From Gigantopelta aegis (Eukaryota > Mollusca > Gastropoda > Neomphalida > Peltospiridae): a DNA stretch of 64,000 bases. The first letter of the stretch is position 1. Every line of letters starts with the position of its first letter. A program made the position numbers and the translations under genes. The stretch lies in assembly GCF_016097555.1 (NCBI RefSeq), contig NC_054712.1:47152571-47216570 (forward strand). The letters run 5' to 3'. The notes under the pieces are model-generated. The model saw only the letters and a list, made by a program, of their open reading frames with translations, was not told the origin of the DNA and made no database searches. Shown here one piece after another: positions 13,703-64,000 of this stretch.

Positions 13703-16700
13703 TTACAAACTAAACAAATCGCCTGCTGATGGAAGGGGAGCTAATCCGCCGGTGACGTCCGGCAGTAAGGTGAGATCAGGTAGATTCTGTAAATGCGACT
13801 TCAGCTCGTTCCGAACAGCTGACACTTTCGATAGTTTAGACTGGTACTCCTGAAATTATAATACAAAGTATGACAGTAGCTTTATGCAATATTCTGGTGA
13901 TTAATAGTATTCATAATAAACACTCATAGGGCTAGCTCTGGCACTCGCCAAATTCACCAATTGTGTATTTCAAAAACAAATGACACATTTTATTTTATTT
14001 TGGCGAATTAATTTCATGTAATAATTTAAATTTTGTTACAAAAATAACAGGGTTTCTGCAATTTTTGAAGTTTAATAAATAATTTGGCGAAATTTTCTGT
14101 AGACCCAGAGATAGCCCTGACTCACATATTCAAAATATGTAATGAGTCTTTTATTATATACAGTGAAATCTCTCTAAATCGAACATCCATTGGACCAAGT
14201 AAAACATCTGTAATAAGGGGTATTCGGTTTAGAGAAATTCTGTTCTGTACAAAAATTTAAAAAAGGACAACGAATGTCCAGTTTTGAGAGGTCCGGTTTA
14301 CTCAGGGTCTGGTTTTGAGGGGTTTTATTGGATAATGGAAGGTCACTTGTTTTATAGCCGTTCTTTCTTGGGAAATGTAGTGTTGAAGACGGTACAGTTT
14401 ACTGATAAACAACGATGTGGTGAGATTAGGCTGATCGTGTAAACATGACTTTTATCATGTTAAACATAGCAGACAACTTGGTAATCAGATACTTCTGAGA
14501 TTGTACTGGCTCTAAAAGTTTTAATACAAGATTAATTATTTCCAATTACAAGTCTAGGTATTCTGCTAGTAACGTATGAATCCGAGGTCCAAGTCAAAAC
14601 AAATTACTCAAATATGTTTTCATAAAGCAGATTAAGCAATCAAGCAAACTGATATGTAAATATTACAATGTAAATATTACAATGTAAATATTACAATGAA
14701 ACGGGACTTGTGATATTTCAATCTGTATCTGAATGATATACAGTCTGCTTTTCAAATTGTGGAGTACATTGGTAGCTATATAATACCAGTCATTCATTAA
14801 ATGTTAACATTGATAATCCATGCTTATATTCAATTACGGTTCAAGTATGACAGCTTCAAAAATATGCCACCAAGCCACCAAGGCTAGTACAGAAAGCTGC
14901 CCAAATTAGTTTTAACCTTTGACCCGACCCCAGATTTAAATGACATTACATGCAGTTTGACATATGACCCGACCCCAGATTTAAATGACATTACATGGAG
15001 CCTGCTCTCAGACTTCTGCAGCTCTCCCTTCTGCTGTTTGATGAACTCCCGCAACATTTTGGCCACCTTCTTCCTCTCCTCGAGTTCATCCGTCAGCCGC
15101 TGGTTGTAGTCCGTCAACAACTGACACGCATTGTCCACCTGCTTGACTAGTTTTACACCCGACTCCTTGTCTGTACATAAACAATACAACACTGAACATT
15201 ACACTCTTATTAACTAATACTGTAACATCACTGGTTGTAGTCTGTCAACACCCGACTCCTTGTCTGTAAATAAATACAACACTGAACATTACACTCTTAT
15301 TAACTAATACCGTAACATCATTGGTTGTAGTCTGTCAACACCCGACTCCTTGTCTGTAAATAAACAATACAACACTGAACATTACACTCTTATTAACTAA
15401 TACCGTAACATCATTGGTTGTAGTCTGTCAACACCCGACTCCTTGTCTGTAAATAAACAATACAGTACTGAACATTACCCCACTCATTAAGTTGCAATTC
15501 ACTATACAAATTTCAGATATCGCTACACAATTCTAAAAAGTTGAATATTAGTTGCTACTCAATTTTGAACTGATCACTAACTGTCGATAAGCAAAATTTT
15601 AAAAATAAAATGTTTCCCGATTATGGATGAAAATAATTTTGGAAAACAAGTTAAAAAACACCAAACTCCTCGCCTCCAAATAAACAATACAAAACCAAAC
15701 ACTACACACTTATAAGTAATAACACCACTTATGGATAAAACAAATTCAAAAACACCAAACTCCTCGCCTCCAAATAAACAATACAAAACCAAACACCACA
15801 CACTTATTAAGTAATAACACCAATTATGGATAAAACAAGTTCAAAAACACCAAACTCCTCGCCTCCAAATAAACAATACAAAACCAAACACTACACACTT
15901 ATTAAGTAATAACACCATTTATTATGGAAAAATTGATACTAAACAAAACTAAACAGAAAATTTAGCAGGATCTTGAAAGGTTGGGGTTATCAAGACCACA
16001 CCTAGCCAAAAATTAATTAGGAGTGCAGTTAAAAACAACTGGGAACAGTGGTAGTGGGACATCTCCACTTAATAAAAAGGGCTTTTATCAGGGGTTACAG
16101 ACAAATGCCTCATTGCCATTATTACAGCCATGGGCATCTAAAGGGGTGGGGAGGGGAAGTGGATCTAGATCTAAGTTATTTTTAGACGTTTCAGTAAAAG
16201 TATATGTTAGCTTTACAGATTACATTGCTAATAGTACATTTAAAAAGTATTGCATTAACCTTCTGACTACTGCAGGCGAGATATCTCACCCGACGTCACG
16301 CCAGTCGACATACTGTACAGTGTATACAGTGCATTTCCCAATTCATATTTCCCGCCGTTTTGCACACGACACTCACTGGAAACTTTTTTTCTTAACAGGA
16401 AATGGTTTATTCTACAGTATGATAGCTTTTGGTTTTAGACAAGTATTTTCGCGTACAACAATGGCGGCACGTCGCAGTCATTTTCAGGGATCGATAGCTG
16501 ATTGTGACAGCTAATTTGATCGTTTTATCAACAACAAAAATCACCAAATATTGCAATATGAATCAGAGTTCGGTTTTTTTTTTTTAATCTGGTCAGAAAA
16601 CCACTTTTATCGGGAATAATGGACATAAATACTGGACAGCTGTCCACAAATGCCTGTAAGTAAACGCAACTTTTTCTAATTTTAATTGCCATTAACTGAT

Positions 16701-19700
16701 CTAAAATATTATTAAAATTATAAAAACCCACGAAAATAATACTTACCGATTCATATATGAACTTTATTTTATGTATTTATAAAAGTGAATATATGTCAGT
16801 AAAAATTATAAACTTGTACCCACTCAACGTAGTTTTTGTCAAAAATTAATCCAGTAGTCTAAATGTTAAGTGTTCAGCATTTGGAATGGTGAATTTCACT
16901 TGTAGAATGCAGGAAAAAGCATTTCAGAACATCTAGCTTTCAATATGTCCCCAGAAACTCAGTCAAGTGGACCTTCCAATGGTCACTCGTTTTACCATGC
17001 CTGTGTATGCCAAACTATGCCTACACGTTATTATGTGCCCCCTCTAAAAACATTCCTGGATACAGACCTAGTCTGTTTGAGTGAAAAGGAAATTGATGAA
17101 TTGGCATATAACTCTATGATGAATAAAGTTAAAATTCATATTAAAATATATTATTAAGTTTTAAACCCAAACCAACTCAAATAACATTTTATGAAAACAA
17201 ATTCAGTGTAAATAAAAAATGTTTCTTTACAAATTATCATCAAATTACATAAGCAAAATCCGTTTACAATGCAGGTATGAAGACAACTGATGGAACAGCC
17301 AACATAGAGAACACACAGCACTACCTTTAGTCTCACTTTACAGCATTATTGATTATTTAATGCAGTTAAGGCTGTTCTGGGATTTTGTCTTCACCCATGT
17401 ATTAAAAATGACATTAATCTATATAATTTGATGGCAGTTTGTTAAAAAACTTTTTTATTTGCACAGACATTTAAAAAAAATAATTTGAGTTGGTAATGGT
17501 ATGGGTTTAAAACTCAGTAATATGTTTTAATATAAGATTTAACATTATTCATTAAAGCTATACCCCTTCATAGTCCATTCCTTGACGTGGTGAGGGGGCT
17601 TGTATGTCTCAATGACCCAGAGAGCTATGCCAGCAGGAGCTTTGGCTTCTGTTAGGGACACTCAAGCTGGACTGGTCAATGGGTAGAGGCTAGACTTATA
17701 TGGACTAAGGGTGATGTAACCCTAACAGAAACCTCAAGTGCTGAAGTCAGAGGTATTGGGCCACATGGCACACTCTAATAGACCACAATACCATGCATCA
17801 ACAGCTATTATGACTACATTAGAGCTATATGCCAATTCATCAGTTAACTTTTCATGCAAACAGACTATAGTTGCTGTTATTACTCACTAACTATTAGTCA
17901 AAGAATAAGGATGGAAACAGATTTAGGGTAGAGGCTTAAATCCAGAGAATCTCCGACTCATGAATGACATGAGAAAAATTTTTTTTACATTTTGCAAAAA
18001 CTGATCAGATTGCAACGTTCACCTTCAAATTTGTAATAAGGGGAGACAACTACTGACCTGATATTTTTTCAAGGTGAGATATATCGGACACTTCTGGCGG
18101 TAGAGCTGCAATCTTTTCTCGTACTGCTGCATCACTCGAAGCTGACGTTTCCAGATCACACAAGCGTTTTACCAGCTCTTCTGCCTGCAACGCAACCAAA
18201 AATATATTTCTAGAAATAAAGTCAATGATGCTAGTGGTTCTTTCTGGTATTTGAAGAAAACCTGGGACCTAATTCACTAAACTCTCGCAACTTTGTGATG
18301 TCACATTTGCAGTGCTAAAAGACTTGCAAAGAGGATGCTTTGTTGTCTAACAGAGCCTAAGAGACCTTTGTGAATTAGGCCCCTGGGCCCTGTTCCACGA
18401 AGCGACCTTAGCCCTAAGATCACATAACTGCACAGCTAACATATGCACTTAACGTGATTTAGCGCTAAGATCACTTTGTGGAACGGGACCCTGGGCATTA
18501 AGTCTTCAATGCATCTGTTGTTATGTTATACAACTGTGTAAGAGATGACCCATAGTAGATCAATATCATGGCCAACATACACTGGAGTCCACTTTTGAGA
18601 CTTGTGGTTGGTTGCTCCATGGTGATAACCCAGTCACTGTCGCCATACCATCCAATAGTATACTGATGGAAAGAAATAAGGGATCCCATAAATACAAACA
18701 TCAAATAAAGAGTGCAACCAAAACCATAATTCATAGTATCAGGAAATTGACTGTGTTACTGGCAGTCATTCCCACAGAATTGGCTTTCAGTCACACATGA
18801 CATCTTTGGATTATATACCGATATTACTACAGTAGTAATTCATTAAAATTTGATTACATTTCAAAGTGTTTTCTTAATTCTTTCCATCAGTATATAAAGA
18901 TGACTGAAATTGATAATTCTGTGATGTGAGAGTTAACCTGAAACTAATTATTGTGTGACGCACATGTGAACATCCGTGCGAGTGCCGTAAACAGGTTTTA
19001 GTTGAAAAATATGTTTAAATTTATTTGAAACCTGGTTTTTGAGGATGTGTAAGAAGGAGAATACTACACGTACATTCATTCCTATTGGTTACCATTTATT
19101 TTACAACAAATTGTTTAAAAATGTATCAAACTCACTTTCGTTCATTACATATGCTTTTTAAACAACTTAGACAAAATAAATGGTATTCAACGGTCACTCG
19201 TGTAGTATATCGACATCGAGTTTGGTTGTAATATGCACCACAATTTTATTTCGCTCAAACATTCGCCAAAATAATTCCACTGTTTCTCACCAATCTACAG
19301 GTTCTCCAATATTAGTCTTACAAACTGTTATAACACTGCTGGTCATGAATAGTAATCTTTATGTAGTAAAAACACTGGAGCTCACATGTGGAGGGTCAAA
19401 AACACCATCCATTGCATCTACTTCCTGTCTGAGAGTCATGAACTGGTCTTGTTTCTTCTTCTTCGGTGGCACAGGCTCCGGAATGGGTGATTCTGAAAAC
19501 AAGCATCATATAAATGGCTAACAGGATGATAAAAAAAAGATAGCAATTTAATAATTAAATTTCCATTATTCATTACAATATAATGTCATCCGATTAGTGC
19601 AGCTATAGAAAAATGAGTCTTTTTAAATTATGGGTTTGATTATGCATTTATTTTCAACACAATTAGTAGCAAACAGGAACGTATTTATTCCTACACGGCA

Positions 19701-22700
19701 TAATTTTCAACTTGAGCCTACTAAAAAACAAGAGTTTCCATCTTCTTTTTTTTAAATGCAAGACACAAGTTGATGATTACCTAAATGTCGTTTGAGTCCT
19801 CGAACAAACTCTTTATCATACACGCCGCGTTCCAACCATATCCCCAAAACCCGGCCAACCCTCTCCTTCATCTTGTCATCAGAATTCCTACAAAATAAAT
19901 ATAATCATGTTAATATACAGCACAGGCCAACTATTTTCAACTCGTAAATATATATGAAATTAAAAGCTTTCTGAAAATCAGTCACCTAATGGTTACTCCC
20001 TGTATAACAAAAGATGCAAGATCCATAAGCAGGGCTTCTAGAATTTTCTTAAAATCCACTAGCCATGGAATCAGTGATTTAAACAATTTACTAGCCACGT
20101 TTAAAAATTCACTCGCTCTACTTTACTTTAAGTTAATACAATTTTACTAAATAATAGTAATAATCAGATATGTCACCTAAAGAGGGAAATGAAGCTTAAA
20201 CGAAACATGACACGAGACCATATTATAGCTCATTTTAAAAGAAAAATGATATAAAAATAATATACAAATAACTTTATAACAATAAAATACGTGTAGTTAA
20301 CTTAAAATTAAGAAATTACGCTAATCAGTATCAAAGTACGATTTATGCATATTTCTTCGTGAGCGTTCGGAAAAAAGGGAAGTGACGTCAGAGCCGCTGT
20401 ACTCTTCCATTGTTGTTAACTGTTTATATATGGAGTAAGGGGCTTACGATCTTTTCAGTCCAACAGTGCCGTACTGCGCGGCCTTTGGGTGTAAAAATAA
20501 ACAGTTTAAAACGATCGGGATTGTCTTTTTATGGTTTTCCAAAGGATTGTATCCGAAGAAAGACGCGTGTATTTTATCGCAAAAGAAAAGATTGGACACC
20601 AACACCGCATAGTACTTTGGTGTCAGCCTAATTACAGCCCGGAGCCCCGAACGTTACCCGGAGACAAAAACAGTACTCGGTTGCGAATGCCGAGTTGTAC
20701 ATTGTACATATTTGGCACAAAGATACACCTCAGCATGATGTATTTATATATGTTAAAACAAAAATGTAGAATTTTTTATTTATTTATTTTTTTGGAAAAA
20801 AATAGATTTTTCATGTTAGGGCTGTAGGCCTACATAACAAAATCTGTATTCACCGTCCGAAGAAGGAAACGGCAATAAGTAATTAAATATGGCATATACA
20901 AACATGGGATTTGGCATGAGGATACATCTCAGTACGATGTATTTAAATATGTTTTTAAAAAACGTGTAGAAAACAATAATAATTTTAAATAATGTTTTTA
21001 ATCTTCGGGCGGAATACGTCACAAAAACGTTCCTCATCGCCCGAAGCCCCAAAGCAACACGAAGTTCAATACAAAAAAACCCACTACTGTCGGTGTCGAA
21101 ATAACTATTATGTTTCATCCACGGGGCTGACTTGAGAATCGGAGTGTTGTTTTAGTTAATTGGTCCTTTCTTTCCGTGGCCTGCACATGTGATTCCTGAT
21201 TGGCAGGTGTATATTGCAGGGTATCGACCAGGTAAGTGATTACCACGGTCTAGACATACGTACAAAATACGTGCCAGTTTTTTTAAGATCACAGGGTATT
21301 GTGGCGTAACCTGTCGCGACTATAGTACAATGTTAATAGACATTATCAGCCTCCCTGCTTCATTACTGTAAATAATGCTGTAAAACCCTTGATTAAGTAG
21401 ACTTTCCCATCTAAAATTACAAAACTGACCAATTACGTAGTACCAAAGAAAAGAAAATTATCACTTGGGTATCGTGAGTGGTCGTTTTTACTCTAACGCA
21501 CCCTACCAATAGGCCTAATAATATGCTACTTTTTTTATGAGAGAAAAATACTTAACCCCATTTCGTTCTATTGATGCAAATAGAAATATATTTTTTAGTT
21601 TAAAAGTTGATTATACTCTCAAGTCATTTATGTTGTTTTACAAGCCAGGTTAATGAAAGTGAAGCGCCTTGTCGTAAATTAGAGCGTTTGTTTACACTGT
21701 GCATACAGATTTCATTATGTACAGCCCGAACATAAAAAATGCGACATTTTCTTTTAAAAAACACCCAAAAATGTTTGTCCTACATTTATATTTTTTACAT
21801 ATTTAAATACATCATATCGAGGTGTATCTTTATGCTAAATATGAACAGTATACACCTCGGCATTAGCATCCGAGTTTTGGTTTTGTCTCCGGGTTGCTTT
21901 CGGGCTCCGGGCTGTAAATTGGTCGACCGGTTTCTGGCACCATCAGTTTCTCCACCCTCCGACTCGCTATCCGTTTTTTCTTCAGTATCACTGTTGTAAG
22001 TAAATGTGTGTCTTTCTTCATTTACTAACGGCTCATATTGATACGGCAAAACGTTTTGCGAAACGAACACTCATTGTTTTTGGTAAGCTGTGCAAGTCTT
22101 AGATTCTTTATGAGTGGTACGGACTAATGCTTTTAAGTGTAAGGCTTCAGATCAAGCGACGCGTCTCTGACGTCACGGACCTCGTGATTGCCCTGCTTAT
22201 TAAAGATCGGCAATTTCCGCTAAGAGCTCGTATCTGGGGTTCTTTTATGGAGATATTTTAAGTAATTAATTTTTTATAAAAAAATTTTTTTAGGTGATTC
22301 AATTTATAATTAATTGTACATGGTTGATGCCAAATATGGTTTACGTGACATGTTTCCTTTAAAAACACCAAAATTTGGGGTTGGGTTGGAATGGGGTCAT
22401 GATATTCATATTTACAAAATAGACCTAACTGCCACAATTGACCAAAAACAAATTTCACTAGCCGTCAGGCATGGCAATAGTAGTCATTTACTAACCCAAC
22501 ACTGAATATCACTAGCCATGGGAGTGGGTCTACCATAATCTATAAGCCCCGATAAGAATTATTCTTATGCATTCATATAGACAGTAAAGCACCATTCCCA
22601 ATGACCTAAATTCTATTTTGATCTTTTAATTAAAGAAAATATATATATGAATGTACTATATATAATAAAATAATTTAAAAATTTAAATAGCTAATGTCCA

Positions 22701-25700
22701 GTCCATTACATGTATAGTATTTATGTAGATGTATAACTAAGTAAATTCTAATGGTTGCAATTTAACTTACTTTCCTGTGCACTTAATTGCATCGGACAAA
22801 ACTGTTGCAAAATCTCTGGACAACTCTGGACCTTTCTTCTTACTGTTTTGGATGACATCATTTGCCAGGTAGATAAATATCAACCTCTTTGCAGGTTTAG
22901 CTGAAATCACATAAACAAACAATATCATCCCAGTAACACAGTGTTCGACAAATGTCTGAAAAAGTCACTAGCCCTCACAGAAGCTTTGGCTAGTGTCCTA
23001 TGTATTATAGTAATACAGTTGATAATTTTTACTAGGCCAGGCAAAAGAGTCACTAGCCGGAACTGAGGGCTAGTAGATTTGTCGAACCCCGTAATAATAT
23101 ATATACAGGTGGTATATGATAAAGTAACTACTATTTAACATGTGACTGGTGGTGTTGCATGGACATCATCAGTAAACATATCCCATGTATGGCATTCCTG
23201 TTTATTCAGTGCATGTACAGGGCTAGCTATTTCACCAAATTATGTTAAGCTTCAAAAACTGCACAAACCCACTTATTTTCAAAACAAAATATCAATTATT
23301 ATATGTAATTATTTTCGTAAAAATTAAAATAAAATTTGTCAATTGCTTTTAAAATTTGCAGTTGGCAAATATGGTGAGTATCCAGTGTTCGAGATTAACG
23401 GTATCCCAATATCCCGGGATACCAGAATTTAATTTTGAATACCAGACTTCAATAACCCAGTATCCCACCGGGATACCCTATAATGTTGGGGTTTTTTTTT
23501 TTTAATCCTGCGTTTAATTTTCGCATGAAACAATGAAAGTCTTCATTTATTGGTGAAGTTAAATAACAATATTTTTGAGCTCGTACTCAATCCAATGCTA
23601 TGCCGTAACAGTATCTCCCCCAACTCATACCCAGTCTAATGCTACACTGGAGCAATAACGGGGTAGCAATACACTGGAAACTGCTACGTCGCTACTGTTT
23701 TTGTTGGACGTTTCCTCCCTTCAAATATTTGAGATATTGATTCCACATCAGTAATGTCAGAAACACTTATAGAGTACCGCTAAATATTAATTTATGTCAA
23801 TATTACTCAAAAATAGATGCAGCAAATCATTTTGCTGATTCCGTTCGATTGCTAATTTCACGAATTCCGCAATTTCAATTGCGGCGTAGCAATAGATCGC
23901 GAACGAGAACAGTGTCCTCCAAGTTTGTTACGATGTTATTTATGAATTTCATTTATAGTCCGTTCCATCATTGTATAAAAATGTTTCTGTAAATAATTTC
24001 AGTTTGGTTTGACGTAAGAAAAGTAAAAGTGGTTTGGAAATAGCAAAACAATACTATTTTTCTGTATAACTTACAAATCAATCAGTCGGCTCAGAAATAA
24101 ATCATTTGTAGTAAATTCCATAGCATGAAAAAAGGCCTTTTCTGTTAGATGGAATATAAGTGGAATACTAAATTCTCAGGTGGGATACCAGATTTTAAAA
24201 TGTTACTATCCAACTGGGATACTGCCTAAAAATGTTAATCTCGAACACTGGTATCAGATCTAGCCCTGGGCCGCGTTCAACCAGACTGAATGGAAAAACA
24301 TCCGCTGTACTGGTTTAGACGCCTCACGTTAAAGCAAATGACCACGTTTGGAACCCAGGGCTTCTAGATTATGATAGCCCCACTCCCATGGCTAGTGATA
24401 TTTAGTGTTGGGCTAGTAAATAACTGCTATTACCATACCAGGCAGGGCTTCTAGATTATGGTAGCCCCACTCCCATGGCTAGTGATATTTAGTGTTGGGC
24501 TAGTTAATAACTACTATTACCATGTCAGACGGCTAGTGATTTTTTTGTCAAATGTTGCAGTTAAAGGGACATTCCTGAGTTTCCTGCAATTTTTAAGATG
24601 TTATCGACTAACAGGACTTTTTAATGATTGTAATTACATATCAAATATATTTTTCTGCATAGCATATTAGTGGCTGTATATTAAACATGTTTCTGATCGT
24701 TTTAATATTTGTACTAGGTTCAATTTCATTTTATTTCCTAAAAAATATCTTTTTCGTACGTACAAAATTATTCGAAGACAAAATCCAGTTTGTGCTTCTT
24801 ACAAATATTAAGACGACCAGAAACACATTGAATATACAGAAACTGATATTCTAAACAAGAAAATATATTTAATATGTAAGTTTAATCGTAGAAATATTTT
24901 CTTATTCGAAAACACAGGAATACACGTGTTCCTTTAAGTCTGTTTTATAAATATAAATATCCTGCCCCTACTTTAAGTAAATACAATTTTACTAACAGGA
25001 ATAATAGGTTATGTCACCTAAAGATGGACATACAGCTTAAAAACCATTAGATATTGGGGAGGACAGTGACAGAAATAAGCAGAATTTTCCACTAGTCCAC
25101 CGGACAAATACATCTAAAAATCTACTTGTCCAAGAATATTTTTATTTGTCCAAATAAATAGTTTGCTTTATTCAAGTACAAGGATGATGGTTTTCACTGT
25201 TCAAAATGAAACTTCTTTTAACATTTTTACTTGTCCACTGGACAACCACCAAGGTACACTTTGTTTGTCCGAGCAGATTTTCACTTGTCAGGACAAACGG
25301 ACAAGTGCTTATTTCGAACACTGGAGGGGGGAGCAGGATATTCATATTTACAAAATGGACTTAAATGCATTTGAAACCTTAATTGTTTGGTTTTTTCACT
25401 AGACATTGGGCATGGACATAGAAGTTATTTACTAGCCCAACATTGAATATCACTAGCCATGGGAGTTGGGCTACCATAATATAGAAGCCTTGGTGAAACG
25501 TTTGCTGGCTGAACTTAAAGCTGATGTACCTGTACATGGAAAACTATTACTTACACCAAAACTGGGGGGGGGGGGGGGGGGGGGGATGATCATGTAAATA
25601 ACACTTTTAAATATAAAACTTAAGTTCTAAGATTATGTATTACTTTGTTCACAGCCTTTAAAATGCAAACCATGTTAGACATTGTGCACAGTCACAGACT

Positions 25701-50500: not shown

Positions 50501-53500
50501 TTAGGCTACGTCCCGCCCAGTTTTCCTGATGAAGTGAGACACTAACTAGACATGAACATAATTCTATCACAGTTTGTTTTTTAAAGTATTCTTTTCACTG
50601 TGTAATAGATCTATACTAATAGACATATACACAGATTTAGAAGTGATGGTGGTTTTTGTCATTTTGGTACATACGGTGTCCATCCACAGGATGGGGAATT
50701 TAATGTTTTGGGCATTTGTAATGAATTTTTTTTTTTTTTTTAAAATGTCTTCTTCTGTTGCCAGGTGACGTCCAAGCACAGGGAGGAAGCGAGTGAATAT
50801 GAAGATACCGATGGTGAGTCTTTAACTTATGTTGATATAGGGAACCTGGTTATGTGAGACTCAGGACTAGCTCTGCCACTCGCCAAATTTGCCAATTACT
50901 AATTTTAAGAACAATTGGCGAATTTTATTTTAATTTGGCGGAAAAAAAATTGTCTGTCATAATTGGATATTTTGTTGGGAAATAGCTCTAGGTTTTGCAT
51001 TTTTTAGATAATTTGGCAAAATTTTCTGATCACCCAGAGCTAGCCCTGAGACTACTTAGTCTATTCAAGGATCAGTCGTTGGCTTACCTGAAGAAACTGC
51101 TGCTCATTCTGTACCATATGTTTGTCATTAACATATTAAGGGGGTTTAGCATATCGGGGTGGCCGGGACGTAGCCCAGTGGTAAAGCGCTCGCTCGATGC
51201 ATGGTCGGTCTGAGATTGATTGCTGCCAGTGGGCCCATTGGGCTATTTCTCATTCCAGCCAGTGCACCACGACTGGTATATCAAAGGCCATTGTATTTAC
51301 TACCCTGTCTGTGGGATGGTGTATATAAAAGATCCCTTGCTACTAATCGAAAAAAAGTAGCCCATGGAGTGGCGACAGCGAGTTTCCTCTCTCAATATAT
51401 GTGTGGTTCTTAACCATGTGTCAGACGCTATATAACCGTAAATAAAATGTGTTGAGTGCGTCGTTAAATAAAACATTTCTTTTTTTCTTTCTTTCTTGCA
51501 TATTGGGGGAGACCACTGCTTGTTCTATACAGGGCTTTCGTGGTCAAGTTTCAAATTGCAAAAAGTACACATGTGCAAATAATACTCATTATACAGTATC
51601 TCTTTAAAGTTGGTTATGTTACCTAGAGGAGGAAGAAGGCTCAATGTTTTTTTTTTAAATCATATATTTGGTTTCAGAATATATAGTTTTGTGTCTTGGT
51701 CCTATTCTTATGAGTGTTATAAAACATTCTGTTTTGTGCTTCCAGACATTCTGATAGCCAAACTGAGAAAGGGACAGGAACTGAAGATCAGAGCGTTTGC
51801 CAGGAAAGGTTTTGCCAAGGAGCATGCTAAATGGAATCCCACGTCTGGTGTGTCATTTGAATATGACCCAGACAATGCCCTGCGACACACACTGTTCCCA
51901 AAGCCAGAAGAATGGTACGTACATATTCGATTCTGTTAATGCCCTCTGACATATGCTGTACCCAAAGCCAGAAGAAGGGTACGCACATATTTGATTCCGT
52001 TAATGCCCTGCGACACACGCTGTACCCAAAGCCAGAAGAATGGTACGTACACATTCAATTCCGTTAATGCCCTGCGACACGCGCTGTACCCAAAGCCAGA
52101 AAAATGGTACATACATATTGGATTCCGTTAATGCCCTTCGACACACTGGACCCAATGTCCGAAAAATGGTATGTACATATTCGATTCCATTAATGCCCTG
52201 CGACACAGCTGTACCCAAATTCAGAGGAATTACGTACATATTTGATTCCATTAATGCTCTGTGACACAGCTGTACCCAAATTCAGAGGAATGGTACGTAC
52301 ATATTCGATTCCATTAATGCTCTGTGACACAGCTGTACCCAAATTCAGAGGAATGGTACGTACATATTCGATTCCATTAATGCCCTGCGACACAGCTGTA
52401 CCCAAATTCAGAGGAATGGTACGTACATATTCGATTCCATTAATGCTCTGTGACACAGCTGTACTCAAATTCAGAGGAATGGTACGCACATATTCGATTC
52501 CATTAATGCTCTGTGACACACACCTAAATCCAAAATCTCGAGCATAGTATTTATTTGTCAAGTATTAGAGCGGTGTGATGTTTTAGCTTGTTATCTGACT
52601 TTAGCTCTAATTTGTTTTGTTTTTTGGCATGAAGATATTTTCTTTTTTCTAGAATCAAATATTGTCAACCAGATTAATATTGCGACATGTTTTTTTTTTT
52701 GTTAGTAATAATAATAATAGTATAAACCTTAGCAGAACTGTTGGTATCTGCATTGAGTATCTGAGGTTGGGCACAAATGACACAAAATGTATACACATGC
52801 ATTTGTTTTCCCCAGAATACAATAATCTTTTAGTTTTTAAATGGGTATCACATGAATGGGATAAAAAGTTTGATGTATGTTTCTCTTGAAGGTGAGTTGC
52901 ATTCTGCCAGTTTATATTGTTGATGTTAGGTCTCACTACACAGACCACTTCCGGGTGAGAGTTCATTCATCACGGTCCTCTATAGTTCCTGATTGTGACA
53001 CAAGTTATGGTTCACATATTCACTTCTAAGAAATGGTGAAGAATTAAAACAATATGTATGTTTAATGGCAAGCCTTCTGGCTGTATTTTGCCCATATTAT
53101 TTTGTAATATTGTGCATTGATCTTTTTGGGACATGGGTGTATAACGCAAGAGACAGCTGGTAGGAATCGGTTAATGAACCACCTGTTCAGACCGGTACTA
53201 TAGCCAGATGTGGTCATATAGCAAAAAACTGAGATGGAAATGTTCTCAATTTTGGAGTGAAAATAAATGCTTATTTAATGTATGTTCGCAATGGTATATG
53301 TTGTTAATGCCGGCGAGAACCCATTCTACTGGCAATCTTCATTTGAAGTTGGGCAATTTAACATGGGTTTCAATGGCAGATGACATGTATGTAGTGAGAC
53401 CTTAAATCACTGTACTGTACCTTCCCTGATGTAAAGATTTTAGTGTTAATAAAATAATCATTTTTACTTTTCACTTTCAGGCCAAAAAGTGAATTTACTG

Positions 53501-54402
53501 AATTGGACGAGGAGCAGTGTAAGTTTCTGTGTTTATGTGTATAAAATTGACTCTCACATAATAGGTGTCACATTTTTCACTGGGCTTTTAATGTTAAATG
53601 TTTGTCATTTAATTATGAAGGGGCAGGATTTAGCTCAGTCGGTTGAGTGCTCGCTTGAGGTGCCTGTGTCACAAGATCGAACCTCCTCAGTGGATCCGTT
53701 CAACTGATTGGGGTTTTCTCTTTCTAACTAGTACACCACAACTGGTCAAAGGCTGTGATATGTGATTTCCTGTGTGGGAAAGTGCATATAAAAGATCCCT
53801 TGCTGCATTAAGAAAATGTAGTGGGTTTCCTCTATTGACGAGTCAGAATTAACAAATGTTTGACATCCAATTAATATATCAATGTGCTCTAGTGGTGTCG
53901 TTAAACAAAAAAACTTTACTTTATGAAAATTGTTTAACATCTCATTGTTAAAACTGACCTTTTAATATACTGTTTATTACGTAATCAAATATTTGAAGTA
54001 TTGTTTTGTAAAATGTTATCTATATTCACAGGTAATTGTAATAAATTAAACATTGTATTGGGGTGGGGAGGGGGTCCATTGATATTGAATACTTTGAAAG
54101 TAGTAATATCAGCTTAAACCATTTATAAGTGCATAATAGAAATACAATATTTTGGTTACTTATAAAAACATCTTGGTTTTATATGTCAACCTAGTTAATC
54201 TGTAACATGTTATATTATTTTAGACGAAGCAGAATTTGATGTGTATGGCAAGCCCAACAAGTTTTTTGTCAACATCGAAACCTCAGGATCATTAAAACCT
54301 GAAGGGATTGTGTTCTCTGCCTTGTCTGTCATCAAGAAGAAACTCAGTGATTTACAGACCCAGCTCAGTCAGGAGATTGCACAGGACGCATTGACAATAT
54401 AG
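26554..54402 (+). CDS. POLR2C: DNA-directed RNA polymerase II subunit RPB3 (complete, 8 exons)
   Basis: RPB3 pairs with RPB11 to seed Pol II assembly. Exons: 26554-26640, 29133-29182, 29916-30037, 33123-33251, 50765-50813, 51746-51914, 53481-53518, 54224-54402 (stop TAG 54400). All junctions are GT-AG with agreeing phases. The protein is about 271-275 aa (human 275). Landmarks: [12 protein letters not shown] in exon 3, the zinc-binding [10 protein letters not shown] in exon 4, [20 protein letters not shown] in exon 6, [15 protein letters not shown] in exon 8. The linker in exon 5 is shorter than in human. Exon 1 is odd: the conserved start MPYANQP at 26554 runs out of frame after one extra A at 26575-26576, while an ATG at 26561 gives [19 protein letters not shown] in the correct frame. 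Intron 4 is 17.5 kb and contains an opposite-strand gene. The exon 6 donor and the stop-codon region have been tandemly copied. Confidence 0.97.
26974..28174. mobile_element. 1.2-kb non-autonomous element with clustered GTCGTTTCGCCC motifs
   Basis: About 100-bp end regions carry the motif GTCGTTTCGCCC (or ATTTCGTCC and similar) four times on the left (26982-27072) and its inverse GGGCGAAACGAC about six times on the right (28048-28160). Terminal GGATATCAGGTCGTTTCGCC pairs with the inverse of GGCGAAATAACCCGGATTCC. The interior (27480-27940) is one copy of a repeat whose second copy lies at 28440-28995. It is in POLR2C intron 1. Superfamily unknown, no coding frame. Confidence 0.68.
28296..28995. 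repeat. Fold-back element, arms about 190-330 bp, interrupted by a MITE
   Basis: Left arm words TAAATTACTCTCCTACCTTT (28310-28326 region) and GATATCGACTTTG pair with right arm AAGGTAGGAGAGTAATTTA and AGAGTCGATATAGG. The right arm is also a second copy of 27730-27940 (TATGTGGAA, ACAAAATGTGG, TAAAATCTAA). A hAT-like MITE sits inside the right arm at 28686-28866. The region lies in POLR2C intron 1. Confidence 0.65.
28686..28866. mobile_element. 181-bp hAT-like MITE (CTAGCTCTG/CTCGCCAAATT family) with empty-site evidence
   Basis: It starts CAGGGCTAGCTCTGCC, ends TAGAGCTAGTCCTG, and is flanked by AGTCT (28681-28685, 28867-28871). The related repeat copy at 27795-27820 lacks the insertion at the equivalent place, which supports the borders. 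Confidence 0.88.
30091..30371. mobile_element. hAT-like MITE with internal triplication
   Basis: The ends are CAGAGTTCGACAAATCTAC and ACATTTGTCAAACACTG; this is the reverse orientation of the 22939-23091 family. A 66-bp piece with GGAAATTATCAACTGTATC and CATAGGGCACTAGCCAAAG is present three times in tandem, making this copy longer. It starts 53 bp after the POLR2C exon 3 donor. The next 170 bp (30380-30545) may be another small MITE. Confidence 0.72.
30840..32055 (-). mobile_element. Tc1/mariner transposon, transposase broken
   Basis: On the minus strand the transposase starts [20 protein letters not shown] (31740), continues in a second frame [20 protein letters not shown] (31650) through [20 protein letters not shown] and [10 protein letters not shown], shifts again near 31060 after NAQGYID, then [11 protein letters not shown] (about 31045) and NPIEHL followed by a stop where W is expected. 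That order matches a Tc1-type DDE triad (SDES, QHDN, NPIE). There are at least two frameshifts and one stop, so it is inactive. The right end near 32055 carries TTTCTTTTTTTGAAGAGT beside TATATA; the left end is not clear. It lies in POLR2C intron 3. Confidence 0.88.
33459..33690. repeat. Two-copy tandem duplication, 110-bp unit
   Basis: GGGAAACACTTTTTCAGTTC begins at 33463 and again at 33573, and the two copies are nearly identical. It lies just inside POLR2C intron 4. The start of a third copy (GTGGGAAACGAAATTTCGGT) follows. Confidence 0.88.
34781..35012. repeat. Minisatellite, 58-bp unit, four copies
   Basis: TTTGAGGACAGGTGGAGTAT begins at 34781, 34839, 34897 and 34955; copies are nearly identical, suggesting recent amplification. 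No nearby exon border contains this sequence. Confidence 0.92.
35519..50122 (-). CDS. NEK-like pseudokinase with a SOCS-box-like segment (partial gene, nested in POLR2C intron 4)
   Basis: Four minus-strand exons join in phase: 50122-49993, 46079-45944, 40471-40291, 36150-35519 (stop TGA 35519). Exon 2 of this set ends [19 protein letters not shown] then GLDQ and the next begins [14 protein letters not shown]; together these resemble a SOCS box (SL, R, LPLP). From about [13 protein letters not shown] onward a protein kinase fold follows: FIKVI at the position of the ATP-site lysine, [28 protein letters not shown], then [10 protein letters not shown] where HRDIKP is expected, LDVKET for DFG, YDAPEVI for APE, and [19 protein letters not shown], closest to the NEK C-lobe. 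The catalytic Asp of HRD and the DFG motif are absent, so it is probably a pseudokinase. The first visible exon has an in-frame TGA near 50106. The true 5' end is not found; function unknown. Confidence 0.75.
36235..36450 (+). mobile_element. SINE, head-truncated, plus orientation
   Basis: It runs from the central domain (CCAGTGCACCATGACTATAT) through GATGGTGCATATAAAAGATC to the tail with AATAAATCAATGTGCTCTAG and GTGTCTTTAAACAAAAC. The tRNA head is missing. It lies just upstream of the last exon of the nested pseudokinase gene, in its intron. Confidence 0.85.
36440..38040. repeat. Degenerate element remnant with a palindrome and a broken acidic coding stretch
   Basis: The plus strand from about 36685 reads [18 protein letters not shown] and, after a stop, [17 protein letters not shown], comparable to NVLPYQYEPL at 21795-22070 (minus). 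A strong palindrome has arms at 37240-37300 and 37350-37412 (AATAAATGACTTGTAAATTC and inverse). The left arm side resembles the interior of 23383-24250. A minus open frame at 37532-37909 has no recognised relative. I read this as remains of a DNA transposon, family unknown. Confidence 0.5.
38085..40375 (-). repeat. Large exon-edge minisatellite at a pseudokinase-gene donor (about 26 copies)
   Basis: The 3' end of the exon at 40291-40471 (CTTCATCAAAGTCATCCTGC, CAGGCAAGAGTG) and its donor GTAAGTACATAACACAC are repeated about 26 times into the downstream intron. The left half (38270-39110) uses an 87-bp unit with donor changed to GTGAATAC. The right half (39240-40290) alternates a GTAAGTAC copy with a GTGAATAC copy, an 85 + 85 bp dimer. 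The 87-bp unit is a multiple of three, which is the only reason a 292-codon frame appears on the plus strand; it is not a gene. Confidence 0.93.
40598..40982 (-). mobile_element. SINE with a third tRNA-like head, minus orientation
   Basis: The body and tail match the GTTGAGTGCGTCG group (AAATGTTTTATTTAACGATG at 40604, AAGGACCACACAGATTTTGA), but the head is different: minus-strand CCGGCCTCGGTGGCGTCGTG, GTTAGGCCATCGGTC (A box) and GGGTTCGGATCCCAG (B box). Full length, about 385 bp. Confidence 0.85.
41000..42235. other. Intron sequence without recognised genes
   Basis: It holds a SINE scrap at about 41065-41220 (central domain words and tail GATGAGGTGTCATTAAACAA). Otherwise it is unremarkable AT-rich DNA with no open frame that I recognise. 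Confidence 0.4.
42240..44870 (-). pseudogene. Broken repetitive-element ORF with GCDTTSA motif and Cys-rich tail
   Basis: On the minus strand a long protein can be followed in several frames: an acidic N-terminal part, then [47 protein letters not shown] and [12 protein letters not shown] (44485-43598), a [20 protein letters not shown] part (43310), [20 protein letters not shown] (about 42840), [17 protein letters not shown] (42460), and a cysteine-rich tail [15 protein letters not shown] (about 42330). I recall similar uncharacterised proteins as multi-copy in molluscs and cnidarians, which suggests a mobile origin, but I cannot name the family. It is broken in several places and not expected to make a protein. 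No terminal repeats found. Confidence 0.6.
45150..45943 (-). repeat. Exon-edge minisatellite, 72-bp unit, about 11 extra copies
   Basis: The end of the exon at 45944-46079 (GTGCTGGCTGCCATCACACT, CAAAGGCTTGGATCAG) with donor GTACAATAAAC is repeated about 11 times into the following intron (minus strand). Most copies keep CAG|GTACAATAAAC. One sign that the exon is the source is that exon sequence upstream of the repeated part (from NMMYHIF to KSPPSLQ) is unique. Because 72 is divisible by three, a spurious 320-codon frame crosses the array on the plus strand. Confidence 0.93.
46117..46421 (-). mobile_element. SINE, near full length, minus orientation
   Basis: From tail AAATGTTTTATTTAATGACG (46135) to head GGGCTACGTCCAGCCCC (inverse of the GTAGCCC A-box region) at 46421. 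The central domain lacks a small part after GCAAGGGATAGCACATACCA. Confidence 0.88.
46979..49552 (+). mobile_element. Tigger (pogo-type Tc1/mariner) transposon, transposase broken
   Basis: The TIRs CAGTCGAACTTGGTCTAACG (46979) and the inverse of CGTTATATACAGGTTTGACT (right end 49552) are flanked by TA. GGTCACC/GGCCACT words repeat inside both ends. The transposase (about 47730-49310, plus) shows a CENP-B-like HTH ([20 protein letters not shown]), then NMDETGLFY (first Asp), [20 protein letters not shown] (second Asp), [20 protein letters not shown] (third Asp) and an acidic C-terminus. It is split by several frameshifts and a stop, so inactive. It lies in POLR2C intron 4, between two exons of the nested gene. 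Confidence 0.92.
49610..49992 (-). repeat. Exon-edge minisatellite, unit about 30 bp
   Basis: The end of the exon at 49993-50122 (CCATACAAGTGCAG) and donor GTAACTCAC are repeated with a basic unit of about 30 bp (CATACAAGAGCAGGTAACTC, ACCAGTTCAC) a dozen times or so into the downstream intron on the minus strand. Most copies keep CAG|GTAACTCAC. A 147-codon minus frame and a 110-codon plus frame through it are artefacts of the repetition. Confidence 0.85.
50201..50519 (-). mobile_element. SINE, full length, minus orientation
   Basis: Tail AAATGTTTTATTTAACGACG at 50207; head inverse GGCTACGTCCCGCCC at 50505-50519. It lies 245 bp before POLR2C exon 5. Confidence 0.9.
50862..51048. mobile_element. 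187-bp hAT-like MITE (CTAGCTCTG/CTCGCCAAATT family)
   Basis: It starts CAGGACTAGCTCTGCC, ends CCAGAGCTAGCCCTG, with AGACT flanking both sides (50857-50861, 51049-51053). Multiple AATTTGGCGAA words. It sits 48 bp after the POLR2C exon 5 donor. Confidence 0.9.
51160..51497 (+). mobile_element. SINE, full length, plus orientation, with 11-bp target duplication
   Basis: Head GGGACGTAGCCCAGTGGTAA (A box) and GGTCTGAGATTGATTGC (B box), central domain, tail GTCGTTAAATAAAACATTTC plus a T/C-rich stretch. Flanks GCATATCGGGG (51149-51159) and GCATATTGGGG (51498-51508) are a target duplication with one change. It lies in POLR2C intron 5. Confidence 0.92.
51860..52540 (+). repeat. Exon-edge minisatellite at the POLR2C exon 6 donor, about 10 extra copies
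   Basis: The last 50 or so bases of exon 6 (AATGCCCTGCGACACACACT, TCCCAAAGCCAGAAGAATG) with donor GTACGTACATATTCGATTC are repeated about 10 times in intron 6 with a unit of 60-63 bp. The first copies keep CCAAAGCCAGAAGAATGGTA; later ones drift to CCAAATTCAGAGGAATGGTA. Nearly all keep GGTACGTACAT or GGTACGCACAT. Apparent open frames on both strands here are products of the array. Confidence 0.93.
53620..53919 (+). mobile_element. SINE, second head type, full length, plus orientation
   Basis: Head GGGGCAGGATTTAGCTCAGT and CGGTTGAGTGCTCG (A box), AGATCGAACCTCC (B box), shared central domain with CATATAAAAGATCCCTTGCT, and tail CAATGTGCTCTAGTGGTGTC, GTTAAACAAAAAAAC. The flanks share TTATGAA (53613-53619 region and 53922-53930). 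It lies in POLR2C intron 7. Confidence 0.88.
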
Positions 54403-54690
54403 ATTTGACTACACCAGATTACTGACAATATAGATCTTACTACATCTCACTGCTGAGAACACAGATCTGGTTGTAGTACTGACAATACAGGTCGTATTAC
54501 GCCACATTGCAGACAATACAAGTGTTATCTGACAGCAGACAATACAAGTCTTATTTGATCTCTGACAGTATAGGTCTTATTATACTACTGACAATACAGG
54601 TCTTATTACACCACACTGCGGACAGTACAAGTGTTATCTGACAGCGGAAATACAAGTCTTACTTGATCTCTTACACAGGTCATGTGTCAT
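54385..54690 (+). repeat. Irregular tandem array starting at the POLR2C stop codon
   Basis: The last coding bases and stop (GCATTGACAATATAG, 54388-54402) are echoed in the 3' flank as TACTGACAATATAGATCTTA, TACTGACAATACAGGTCGTA, TACTGACAATACAGGTCTTA and further decayed copies, with irregular spacing of 35-65 bp. It forms the start of the 3' UTR. Confidence 0.75.
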
Positions 54691-60570: not shown

Positions 60571-63500
60571 ATGGCGGATGCGGAAGAAAGGACACCACTG
60601 TTGAAAGAAAACACTGGCGTGAATGATGCTCAAGAACCACCGCCTTATACGCGTAATGCCAAACAACTGCCAGTACTATTAGTTAGCGATTCCCATGAAA
60701 TATTAGCTGTGTTATGTTTGCATTTTGTATTGTAGATTCATTTTAGTATACTATTTGCATGGCATTTTTTTTGGCTACCCATATCTATGTAATTTCGTGA
60801 TAACAACGCATATCAGTATTAGGGGCTGAATGCCAGACAACTCGGCCCCGAGGACAACTCGGCCCAGACAACTCGGCCCACGTCGAGACAACTCGGCCCA
60901 GAGTTCTGAGACAACCCGGCCCACCGCGAGACAACTCGGCCCGGAGTCCAGGGACAATCTTGTCTATTGTTGGACAAGTGTTGTTTTTTAAATTAAAGTA
61001 TTCTCTCTGAAATAAAAGAATGTGTTTTTGTTAGTATTGAATTAGTCCCACCTTAACCTAAACGTCCCGAAACGAAGTGTCATGTCGGATTGATAAATTG
61101 CTGATCCATTTATCTTTGAAGATAGTTTCCGCTGTTCGAATAATTTGTTTTTGTTCTACAGTCGGTGACCTAAATATTGGAGTTGATCCCAGAAAAAACA
61201 TGCAAAAGTTCTTTATCGTACTTTATCGTAGTAACAACACTCGCGGATATAGCCTCCTGACTTGTTGTAGTATGAAGTATTTTCCTCCTTCCAATTTCTG
61301 ACTCAGATTCCACTTCGGCACAAAGATCAAGCAAATGATATCACGTATGACATGCACAATTGTCATTCTTAATGGTGACCATATAGTTAGCGGTATCTAT
61401 CAGTATAATGCATTAATATTACTATAGTACAATACTACGACATGGCCAACTATCATACTTAACACGCATATAATGTGTCGCAGCATGCCCCGTCTATCAG
61501 TCTAATAACGGCCCCGAGGCCGAGTTGTCTGGTCCCCTTAGGGGCTCCAGGTAAATCTGGAATTATTAAATAATTTTTGGCGATAATGGAACCATTGAAG
61601 CCTACCGTAATGTTGATATATATATATATATTTTTTTCATTTAGATAAAAAACCCAAACCCAAACCTGATTTGTGTTTATCCTCAGCCTATCAAAAACTA
61701 GTTCATCAAGATAAACCTCGCATGCAAAGCACAACGGCGAGGTATATCCTGTCTATCCATTCCGCCATTCGCAGTTTCTGGACAACGGTTCCGAGGAATT
61801 TTGCTCGGAACGAAATTGCGGTCAAAATAACGATTACCATCACATTTCCCCACCCTAATCATATATTGTGATCTATTTCGAGCTCACTGAGACCAAGAAA
61901 TACTTACTTTGAAACGATCTTCACTTTGAATTAAAGGAAAAAAGTCTGACTTTACCAAGCGGATTCTAGTAGCCACTTTCTAGCAGCCAATTACGCTGGC
62001 AGACAATATCAGCTGACACGCAGGGCGACGTTCTAAACACCGGAATCATACACCTTTCGAAGACCTTTAAGACATAAAAATGAGTCTTGGTTGCTATTTT
62101 GATTTTGTGTGTTTTTCTATATAAAGATACTCTTTTAAACTCTGAAATTCTTAAGTTATAGTGAATACTAATAATTAGCATATGATTATCAGTGTGTTTA
62201 AAAGTGTGGGAAATACAAGTAACAATTGAAAGGCGTATGATTCCGGTGTTTAGAACGTCGCCATGCGTGTCAGCTGATATTGTCTGCCAGCGTAATTGGC
62301 TGTTAGAAAGTGGCTGCTAGAATCCGCTCGGTAAAGTCGGACTTTTTTCCTTTAATTCAAAGTGAAGATCGTTTCAAAGTAAGTATTTCTTGGTCTCAGT
62401 GAGCTCGAAATATATCACAATATACGATTAGGGTGGGGAAATGTGATGGTAATCGTTATTTTGACCGCAATTTCGTTCTGAGCAAAATTCCTCGGAACCG
62501 TTGTCCAGAAACTGCGAATGGCGGAATGGATAGACAGGATAAACCTCGCCTTTGTGCTTTGCACGCGAAGTTTATCTTGATGAACTAATCAAAAACCATC
62601 CCATTAAGCTACTGCACATGACCATTGCATTCATCTGATTCATTTAGCGACATTGTTTTTGTGTTTTTAAATCTAAGGTAATATCAACTAACAACAAATC
62701 GATACTGTTTTGCTTAGTTTAATTACTTATGACATGAAAAATCCTATGATGGTAGGGTTAGTAAATGTTATGTTTCTTTGTAATTAGCCCAAGTACTCTG
62801 CCATTAAACAGGTGGACAGTTATGATTGCTATTAGTGTAATTATAAAGGCCCAAATTCTGTCTAGCTCTCTAATGGCAGAGTATCGTACTCGGCCTGTTG
62901 TGTAACTAAGACTGAAAACCATCCCATGTGGCAGACAAGAATTTATATGTAGGCCTACCATCCCCAAAACAAGATAGCACATACTATAGTCTGTGATATA
63001 CAAGTTGAGATGCGCTGGCTGGAACGGGAAATAACCCAATTTGTCCACCAAGTGTAGTAGACAGTGACATGACTATCTAGAAAATGTGTCATTTGAACCT
63101 GTCTTGGGCAGAAAACACTCACAAAGTCAGAGGTGGTGTCCACAGCAGGTGTGATTGAACAGTTCTCTGGTGGAAAAGAAAAGTTACTTGTTTGCCAAGC
63201 CTAACTAAATATAAACAAAGACGTGTCATTCAGTCGATTAATTTGTAATGCTGTTGTGTAAGACAATCAAACTTACTTTGAAAGTGTTTTATATAGAATA
63301 TATTATCAGATTATTTAATCCATGAAATACATAATATTATTTTCTGTCACATGCTTGTGACCAAAGACAGCATTGAGTTTCTTTCCATCAAGACAGTTAT
63401 TGCTTTTTATTTTTATTTTGGTTTGTACCATAACATTTGTTACTGATCAGGTTTATATTATAAGACTTAAAACACAGTCAGTTGATAATTTAACTTCATT

Positions 63501-63791
63501 TATGTAGCAATGTAGTAAATGTTATGAGAATGAACGTAACAAACTACTCTAAATGGTTTGATTCCTTTGCTTAAATCAACTAATAAAAATCTTTTTGCAG
63601 AACCGCTTACCTCATCTCAACAGGAAGTGACCATTCCACCGATAGGACCAGATGAACTCCCTCCCCCATACACTGCCACACCTCAAGGGGGTCTGCCGAT
63701 GATCAACTGTAAAATATGTCAGGCTATGATCAACATCGAGGGCAAAACTCATCTTCATGTAGTGAAGTGCTCAGTGTGTCATGAAGCTACA
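60571..63791 (+). CDS. PIP4P2: Type I/II phosphatidylinositol 4,5-bisphosphate 4-phosphatase (TMEM55), first two coding exons
   Basis: PIP4P proteins sit in late endosome/lysosome membranes and are reported to convert PI(4,5)P2 to PI5P. Exon 1 is 60571-60652 (MADAEERTPLLKENTGVNDA, QEPPPYT), with donor C|GTAATG, phase 1. Exon 2 is 63601-63791 (QPLTSSQQEV, GPDELPPPYTATPQGGLPMI, NCKICQAMINIEGKTHLHVV, KCSVCHEAT), with acceptor TTTTTGCAG and donor ACA|GTGAGT, phase 0. Both match vertebrate PIP4P1/2: the acidic ERxPLL N-terminus (a likely lysosomal sorting signal), proline-rich PPPYT, and the first two CxxC pairs of the zinc-binding domain. The catalytic CX5R motif and the two membrane spans lie in exons beyond the right edge. 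Intron 1 holds two transposon-like elements. The exon 2 donor is tandemly copied. Confidence 0.93.
60821..61540. mobile_element. 0.7-kb non-autonomous element with clustered GACAACTCGGCCC motifs
   Basis: The left end (60821-60950) carries GACAACTCGGCCC six times in direct orientation. The right end carries the inverse GGCCGAGTTGTCTGG (61517-61532) next to TTAGGGGCTCC, matching the left AGGGGCTGAATGCCAGACAA in inverse. In architecture it is like the element at 26974-28174 but with another motif. In PIP4P intron 1; no coding frame. Confidence 0.65.
61699..62587. mobile_element. Mutator-like fold-back element, about 370-bp TIRs, 9-bp target duplication
   Basis: The left arm 61699-62066 and right arm 62217-62587 are inverse with only scattered differences (left TAGTTCATCAAGATAAACCT; right ends with its inverse). 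The spacer is about 150 bp. ATCAAAAAC flanks both sides (61690-61698, 62588-62596). Long TIRs with a 9-bp duplication are the hallmark of Mutator-like elements. No transposase inside. In PIP4P intron 1. Confidence 0.85.
62925..63060 (-). mobile_element. SINE fragment, central domain, minus orientation
   Basis: It contains CAAGATAGCACATACTATAG and GCTGGCTGGAACGGGAAATA. Diverged and truncated on both sides. Confidence 0.65.
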
Positions 63792-64000
63792 GTGAGTATT
63801 AACATCGCGGGCGAGACTTAATGTAGTGAAGTGTAGTGTCGTGAAGCTACAGTAAGTATTAACACCAAGGGCGAGACTTCATGTAGTGAAGTACTCAGTG
63901 TGTCATGAAGCTACAGTAAGTATTAACATTGAGGGCAAAGACTTCATGTAGTGAAGTGCACAGTGTATCATGAAGCTACAGTGACTATTAACACCGAGGG
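63725..64000 (+). repeat. Exon-edge minisatellite at the PIP4P exon 2 donor
   Basis: The last 50 or so bases of exon 2 (CATGTAGTGAAGTGCTCAGT, GTGTCATGAAGCTACA) plus donor GTGAGTATTAACA are repeated at least three more times to the window edge, unit about 60-66 bp. Copies at 63847 and 63916 read GAAGCTACAGTAAGTATT, a stronger donor than the original GTGAGT; the copy near 63980 has GTGACT. The array runs past the right edge. Confidence 0.92.

What the first reader, a model, noticed from the sequence alone, without database searches (positions are those of the whole stretch)
15070..64000. Tandem arrays repeatedly grown from exon edges, each copy carrying a splice site
Six arrays in this window start exactly at an exon-intron border and repeat the same kind of unit: 14-60 coding bases, the splice site and 10-45 intron bases. 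They occur at RPRD1 exon 6 (acceptor), three donors of the nested pseudokinase gene, POLR2C exon 6 donor and PIP4P exon 2 donor, with a looser case at the POLR2C stop codon. There are about 20 recognisable exons, so this is far above chance placement of minisatellites. Units differ in sequence and length (about 30, 63, 65, 72, 85-87 and 90 bp), so this is not one dispersed repeat. It suggests a process that amplifies DNA at splice junctions, for example something linked to transcription, R-loops or local re-copying, or selection tolerating arrays only there. The effect could be rows of decoy or alternative splice sites. I know of no named system that does this.
Basis: partly seen in the sequence, partly recalled or inferred. 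Interest (0 to 1): 0.9.

Follow-up and report, generated by a model that had tools for sequence, protein, structure and literature searches.

The report
Exon-edge minisatellites ("mirages") in animal genes
In this stretch of an animal genome about one in five mapped splice junctions has been copied over and over into the neighbouring intron, a real but already named oddity ("mirages", reported from amphioxus) that probably grows by ordinary repeat copying anchored on an exon edge which selection cannot let go.

Summary
The POLR2C stop codon has a looser array with no splice site. The arrays are unrelated, apart from an older diverged one in the same RPRD1 intron. Enrichment depends on the null: one founding unit per array, 7 of 17 against 0.80 expected (P about 8e-6); whole-array overlap, only P 0.04-0.09.

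The kind is not new: such arrays are described in amphioxus genes as "mirages". The junction sits at no fixed place in the unit (intron share 5-60 nt). About half the copied donors (31 of 58) score as well as the real one, yet in five arrays 0 of 57 would give an in-frame, stop-free product. Sense-strand skew is inconsistent and units do not fold unusually. Best reading: random junction-spanning duplication, filtered by splicing, then amplified in blocks around a conserved master copy; the master-copy step is inferred. The host is an animal of unproven phylum; a SINE that I recall from molluscs hints it is not amphioxus, which would extend mirages to a second phylum.

The parts
15155..15478 (-). 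Array at RPRD1 exon 6 acceptor (last intron base 15171): 4 acceptor copies, 90-93 bp unit, about 32 exon nt (with 38 exon nt missing inside) + about 60 intron nt
15643..15922 (-). Older diverged array (95 bp x 3) related to the 15155 array, same intron
   Evidence: 68% over 261 bp; one search shows the same with a mis-cut unit
14905..15000 (-).
38068..40372 (-). Array at donor of pseudokinase exon k3 (last exon base 40291): 26 copies, 85/87 bp (one 83), about 82 exon nt + 5 intron nt (up to 3 of the 5 also match the exon); exon-side copies form 170-bp dimers
45142..46001 (-). Array at donor of pseudokinase exon k2 (45944): 12 copies, 72 bp, 58 exon + 14 intron nt
49598..50005 (-). Array at donor of putative pseudokinase exon k1 (49993): 15 copies, 30/21 bp, about 14 exon + 7-16 intron nt; 4 of 15 have lost GT
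51874..52520 (+). Array at donor of POLR2C exon 6 (51914): about 10 copies, 62-64 bp, 41 exon + 22 intron nt
63729..64000 (+). Array at donor of PIP4P exon 2 (63791): 4 copies, 60-65 bp, about 58 exon + 6 intron nt; runs to the window end
54392..54675 (+). Looser array grown from the POLR2C stop codon into the 3' UTR; no splice site involved
   Evidence: shuffle P 0.004
13703..26163 (-). RPRD1 gene: exons 26163-26013, 22900-22771, 19887-19781, 19492-19386, 18184-18058, 15170-14995, 13849-13703
26554..54402 (+). POLR2C (RPB3): exons 26554-26640, 29133-29182, 29916-30037, 33123-33251, 50765-50813, 51746-51914, 53481-53518, 54224-54402
35519..49993 (-). Nested NEK-like pseudokinase: exons k1 (ends 49993, start not placed), k2 46079-45944, k3 40471-40291, k4 36150-35519; phases join open (2, 0, 1), worked out by hand
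   Evidence: only k4 has homology support, k1 weakest
60571..63791 (+). PIP4P (TMEM55) exons 60571-60652 (donor chosen by phase) and 63601-63791

Best explanation
These are mirage-type minisatellites: tandem arrays whose unit spans an exon-intron border. Most likely a short tandem duplication (about 20-95 bp) arose at random; those that straddled a border survived if the outermost copy kept a working splice site; they then grew by unequal exchange or slippage of one or several units at a time (170-bp dimers at k3). Shown: unit anatomy, noncoding-side growth, mostly intact copied sites, no fixed breakpoint offset, dimer structure. Inferred: the enrichment at borders comes from persistence. One copy, the real exon edge, is held by purifying selection and cannot be lost, so the array keeps a good template while purely intronic arrays decay or vanish. 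Splicing must choose the outermost site; copied sites are silent or lead to broken messages.
For: 7 of 41 borders have strong local copies, the rest background; founder test 7 of 17 arrays vs 0.80 expected, robust to adding four dropped short arrays (P 1.2e-5) and to leaving out the pseudokinase (4 of 14 vs 0.55, P 0.0015). Intron share of unit 5, 6, 14, 16, 22, 39, 60 nt, compatible with uniform; donors keep the first 5 or more intron bases, the one acceptor keeps 60 nt, as a splicing filter predicts; 6 of 18 donors vs 1 of 17 acceptors (P 0.088). k3 next-but-one units match at 83-85 of 85 bases, adjacent ones at 81-82. Border arrays longer and with more copies than the ten others (one-sided P 0.028 and 0.035). 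Only 1 of 91 pairs of 14 arrays is related. A stop-codon array shows that no splice site is needed.
Against: Persistence itself was not tested; it needs sister species or haplotypes. The founder P rests on a uniform null and one hand-picked window; the overlap null gives only P 0.04-0.09. In the grid test, 7 of 39 borders beat 95 of 1585 positions outside border arrays (P 0.009), but with border-array bodies included the grid rate is 249 of 1751, close to that of the borders. The donor excess is not significant alone. Scores are bimodal, with few decayed arrays visible at borders, which a long-lived class might not predict. One array of many copies (55072-56007, 24 bp) lies off any mapped border. 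k1-k3 are predicted exons.
Confidence: 0.6

Rival explanations
1. A transcription-, R-loop- or splicing-linked process actively amplifies DNA at splice junctions (mutational hotspot).
For: Enrichment at borders in the founder test and a donor-heavy pattern; all seven lie in genes.
Against: No fixed offset to the junction; sense-strand GC skew -0.36 to +0.40, no G-rich sense bias; no unusual folding in six units; stop-codon array without splice site; 10 of 17 arrays not at splice borders.
Confidence: 0.2
2. Chance: ordinary minisatellites of a repeat-rich genome, some of which overlap junctions, noticed because the window was picked.
For: Whole-array overlap test only P 0.04-0.09 (0.037-0.066 by circular shifts); many other arrays in the window; grid rate 249 of 1751 when border arrays are included; picked window.
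Against: The junction falls within the first unit of the array: 7 of 17 vs 0.80 expected, 4 of 14 vs 0.55 without the pseudokinase; 7 of 39 borders vs 95 of 1585 grid positions outside border arrays (P 0.009).
Confidence: 0.15
3. The copied sites are used: rows of decoy or alternative splice sites regulate expression (for example through NMD) or add protein repeats.
For: 68 of 73 copies keep the splice dinucleotide; 31 of 58 copied donors score at least as high as the real one by a simple recalled matrix. Arrays k1, k2 and part of k3 are open in another frame than the predicted one, so the verdict for them rests on the predicted phases.
Against: 0 of 57 copied donors in five arrays give an in-frame stop-free insertion; 1 of 1 at the RPRD1 exon 6 donor does. 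High copy identity alone can explain intact sites; in the more diverged k1 array 4 of 15 have lost GT. NMD regulation remains possible.
Confidence: 0.08
4. Assembly artefact.
For: Repeats are easily mis-sized; a 1-base frame break in POLR2C exon 1 suggests residual errors; two assemblies of lancelet PGBD5 disagree on copy number.
Against: Unrelated units at seven junctions with diverged, ordered variants; the PGBD5 authors report that re-examined reads confirmed their sequence. Copy number here may still be wrong.
Confidence: 0.04

Closest known systems
'Mirages' of amphioxus (Adh3, globins Gb6 and Gb9, PGBD5, TnC)
   Same: Tandem repeats spanning 5' or 3' exon-intron borders, units from 10 to about 160 bp, many copies with splice signals (PMC3087553 and PMC3902484, passages only)
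   Different: Up to 26 copies here; 7 of 35 splice sites in one window; a stop-codon case; host possibly another phylum; no RNA or polymorphism data here
Intron gain by tandem duplication of AG/GT-bearing segments (Rogers model, named in PMC3087553; potato RdRp case PMC4974935, listing and abstract start only)
   Same: Tandem duplication creates extra splice sites
   Different: No new intron was seen here; the duplication spans an existing border
Introner elements (recalled)
   Same: Repeats linked to splice sites
   Different: Introners are dispersed families that make new introns; here units are unrelated

Membership tests
mirage minisatellites | tandem units span an exon-intron border | tested here: met
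   7 junctions
mirage minisatellites | both donor and acceptor borders can be involved | tested here: met
   6 donors, 1 acceptor
mirage minisatellites | many but not all copies keep splice signals | tested here: met
   68 of 73, plus one copy read by eye
mirage minisatellites | regular splicing is undisturbed | not testable with these tools
   no RNA; in five donor arrays only the outermost donor keeps the reading frame
mirage minisatellites | length polymorphism and somatic instability | not testable with these tools
   one sequence only
mirage minisatellites | host is a cephalochordate (all cases I found reported) | tested here: inconclusive
   no genome held; SINE searches empty; molluscan origin of the SINE is recalled only
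introner elements | one dispersed sequence family at many sites (recalled definition) | tested here: not met
   1 of 91 array pairs related, and that pair shares one intron

The most novel reading that the evidence does not exclude
Exon-anchored minisatellites are a general, frequent feature of some animal genomes outside amphioxus (here perhaps a mollusc), affecting about a fifth of splice sites, because a selected exon edge acts as an undying master copy; the spliceosome in such animals must reliably choose the outermost of up to 26 closely similar splice sites.
Probability: 0.4. Interest if true: 0.72.

Novelty: new member of a known kind. Interest (0 to 1): 0.5.

Why it matters
If general, such arrays are natural tests of splice-site choice among near-identical neighbours, a source of intron growth and perhaps of new introns, and a case where purifying selection on one copy may keep a minisatellite alive. 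A second phylum would show that mirages are not an amphioxus peculiarity.

Tried and rejected
Tried without result: identifying the host by its SINE in viral and bacterial/archaeal contigs and in paper texts (passages of two papers); Pfam on three minus-strand frames of 37-52 kb for the pseudokinase N-lobe (none; the k4 open frame alone matched). Considered and rejected: one dispersed repeat; R-loop orientation; hairpin-driven slippage; homology of every unit's intron part to upstream exon sequence (holds for PIP4P at shuffle P 0.006; P 0.32 e6, 0.86 k3, 0.19 k2, 0.12 k1). Donor against acceptor bias is suggestive only (P 0.088).

Not done: genome-wide test, sister species, reads, RNA. The original 2002 mirage paper was not held (one search used a DOI given from memory that proved not to be that paper's); it is known here only through PMC3087553 and PMC3902484.
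Full report
WHAT WAS CHECKED. Tandem Repeats Finder lists 49 rows in the window, which I merged to 19 arrays after leaving out mono- and dinucleotide runs and arrays shorter than 50 bp (14654-14698, 25886-25930, 35343-35368, 46994-47037, 56535-56564, 58244-58268, 60161-60196). Seventeen lie in the annotated part (13.5-64 kb) and are used in the tests. Four of the dropped arrays (14654, 25886, 35343, 46994) lie 82-915 bp from the nearest border; adding them changes little.

GENES. Pfam searches of parts of both strands, three frames each (plus 36-64 kb, minus 14-29 and 37-52 kb, plus one minus frame of 20.5-35.5 kb), and tblastn with recalled human proteins place RPRD1 on the minus strand (7 exons), POLR2C/RPB3 on the plus strand (8 exons, including a 49-nt exon 5 at 50765-50813 found by a phase-aware scan) and PIP4P exons 1-2. 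Window 1-13.5 kb was not annotated. A minus-strand gene nested in the 17.5-kb POLR2C intron 4 ends in a kinase C-lobe exon, k4; it matches Pkinase (2.9e-12) and NEK7 best among solved structures, with degraded catalytic motifs by eye. Its upstream exons k3, k2 and k1 were placed by hand from open, phase-consistent frames and splice signals; the structure match does not extend into them, so they are predictions, k1 most of all. That gives 21 exons, 41 coding borders and 35 splice sites (18 donors, 17 acceptors; the k1 acceptor is not placed).

THE ARRAYS. For each border a 60-base probe was aligned to 700 bases on either side. Seven borders score 67-120, each with its best copy on the noncoding side; the other 34 score 28 or less (32, two). 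The seven are RPRD1 exon 6 acceptor and donor, pseudokinase k1, k2 and k3 donors, POLR2C exon 6 donor and PIP4P exon 2 donor. The RPRD1 exon 6 donor was not in the finding; it has two copies, crosses the border by 3-6 nt, and TRF's own interval stops 5 bp short of the border. Copies with intact GT or AG: 4/4, 2/2, 11/15 (k1), 12/12 (k2), 26/26 (k3), 9/10 (POLR2C; the tenth, near 52231, was read by eye), 4/4 (PIP4P), 68 of 73 in all.

UNIT ANATOMY. Exon and intron shares (nt): RPRD1 acceptor about 32 + 60; RPRD1 donor 3-6 + 39; k3 82 + 5 (up to 3 of the 5 also match the exon); k2 58 + 14; k1 14 + 7 to 16; POLR2C 41 + 22; PIP4P about 58 + 6. In PIP4P what looks like intron is a diverged copy of more upstream exon, with 5 nt missing. 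In RPRD1 the copies join exon nt 1-15 to exon nt 54-70 with 38 nt missing between, so a longer duplication seems to have been trimmed before it was amplified. A second array in the same intron (15643-15922) is related to the first (68% over 261 bp), so this border has probably grown arrays at least twice. In k3 the exon-side units alternate GTAAGT and GTGAAT, and next-but-one units match at 83-85 of 85 bases against 81-82 for neighbours: block amplification that includes the working site itself.

CHANCE. Placing one founding unit per array at random over 50.5 kb, 0.80 of 17 arrays are expected to straddle a border by at least 3 nt; 7 do (P about 8e-6). Placing whole arrays, which favours long arrays, gives P 0.042 (7 of 17, slack 15), 0.093 (6 of 17) and 0.079 (6 of 15). 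The founder test fits how arrays arise, but both are told. Local copies occur at 7 of 39 borders against 95 of 1585 grid positions outside border arrays (P 0.009), but against 249 of 1751 when the bodies of border arrays are counted too. The window was chosen by a reader looking for oddities, so none of these is a genome-wide P value.

MECHANISM. The junction position within the unit is compatible with uniform (KS P 0.76, n=7). Duplications locked to the splicing machinery should show a fixed offset; random duplications that must leave the outermost site working should only show a lower bound, and donors indeed keep 5 or more intron bases while the one acceptor keeps 60. The same filter predicts more donors than acceptors (1.4 to 3.9 fold depending on the acceptor need assumed); observed 6 of 18 against 1 of 17 (P 0.088). 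Sense-strand GC skew varies from -0.36 to +0.40 over seven arrays and none of six units folds unusually as single-stranded DNA (z from -1.47 to +0.85). The POLR2C stop codon has a looser array at a border without splicing (P 0.004). Border arrays are longer and richer in copies than the other ten (one-sided P 0.028 and 0.035). I infer, without direct test, that the selected exon edge acts as a lasting master copy.

DO COPIED SITES MATTER? Using a copied donor gives an in-frame, stop-free product in 0 of 57 cases in five arrays (8 POLR2C, 3 PIP4P, 25 k3, 11 k2, 10 k1; copies without GT left out) and in 1 of 1 at the RPRD1 exon 6 donor; the three extra RPRD1 acceptors add stops in every frame. 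For k1-k3 this rests on predicted phases; k1, k2 and part of k3 are open in another frame. By a simple recalled donor matrix 31 of 58 copied donors score at least as high as the real one; in k3 only 6 of 25 do. So the outermost site must be chosen, or the message is lost.

WHAT IS KNOWN. Tandem duplications of exon-intron borders are described in amphioxus as 'mirages': Adh3 (10-72 bp units), globins Gb6 (150-160 bp) and Gb9 (157 bp), with length instability, somatic instability at Adh3 and apparently normal splicing (PMC3087553, passages), and PGBD5 (60 and 108 bp, copy number differing between assemblies; TnC also named) (PMC3902484, passages). I noticed no report outside amphioxus in the listings of searches (15 of 28 listed), 53 and 63 of this open-licence library; that is not proof of absence. 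The abalone TSSK1-like gene has an intronic 27-bp minisatellite (PMC6905558, passages), not described there as lying at a border.

HOST. No genome is held for the window. A tRNA-derived-looking SINE-like element of about 320 bp (8 copies aligned) is one I recall from molluscs; nothing retrieved confirms this. If the host is amphioxus the finding is an added example; if a mollusc, it extends mirages to another phylum.

Noticed in passing
26554-26640: POLR2C exon 1 has a one-base frame break shortly after the start codon; probably a sequencing or assembly error in an essential gene.
   Followed up: partly
26163-26554: RPRD1 and POLR2C start codons lie head to head about 390 bp apart, perhaps sharing a promoter region.
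   Followed up: no
33252-50764: A pseudokinase gene lies antisense inside POLR2C intron 4, and three of its predicted donors carry the border arrays with most copies (26, 15 and 12).
   Followed up: partly
12966-13180, 40593-40819, 46122-46423, 50195-50519, 51158-51490, 57201-57693, 59822-60144: SINE-like element of about 320 bp, 8 copies aligned, two of them side by side in opposite orientation; could identify the host.
   Followed up: partly
47746-48830: pogo/Tigger-like transposon remains (CENP-B_N, HTH_Tnp_Tc5, DDE_1 matches), plus strand, spread over more than one frame.
   Followed up: no
31040-31723: Tc1/mariner-like transposase fragment, minus strand.
   Followed up: no
43598-44500: 300-aa open frame on the minus strand with no Pfam match; possibly from a mobile element.
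   Followed up: no
61699-62587: Inverted repeat of 360 bp (96% identical), arms about 170 bp apart, in PIP4P intron 1.
   Followed up: no
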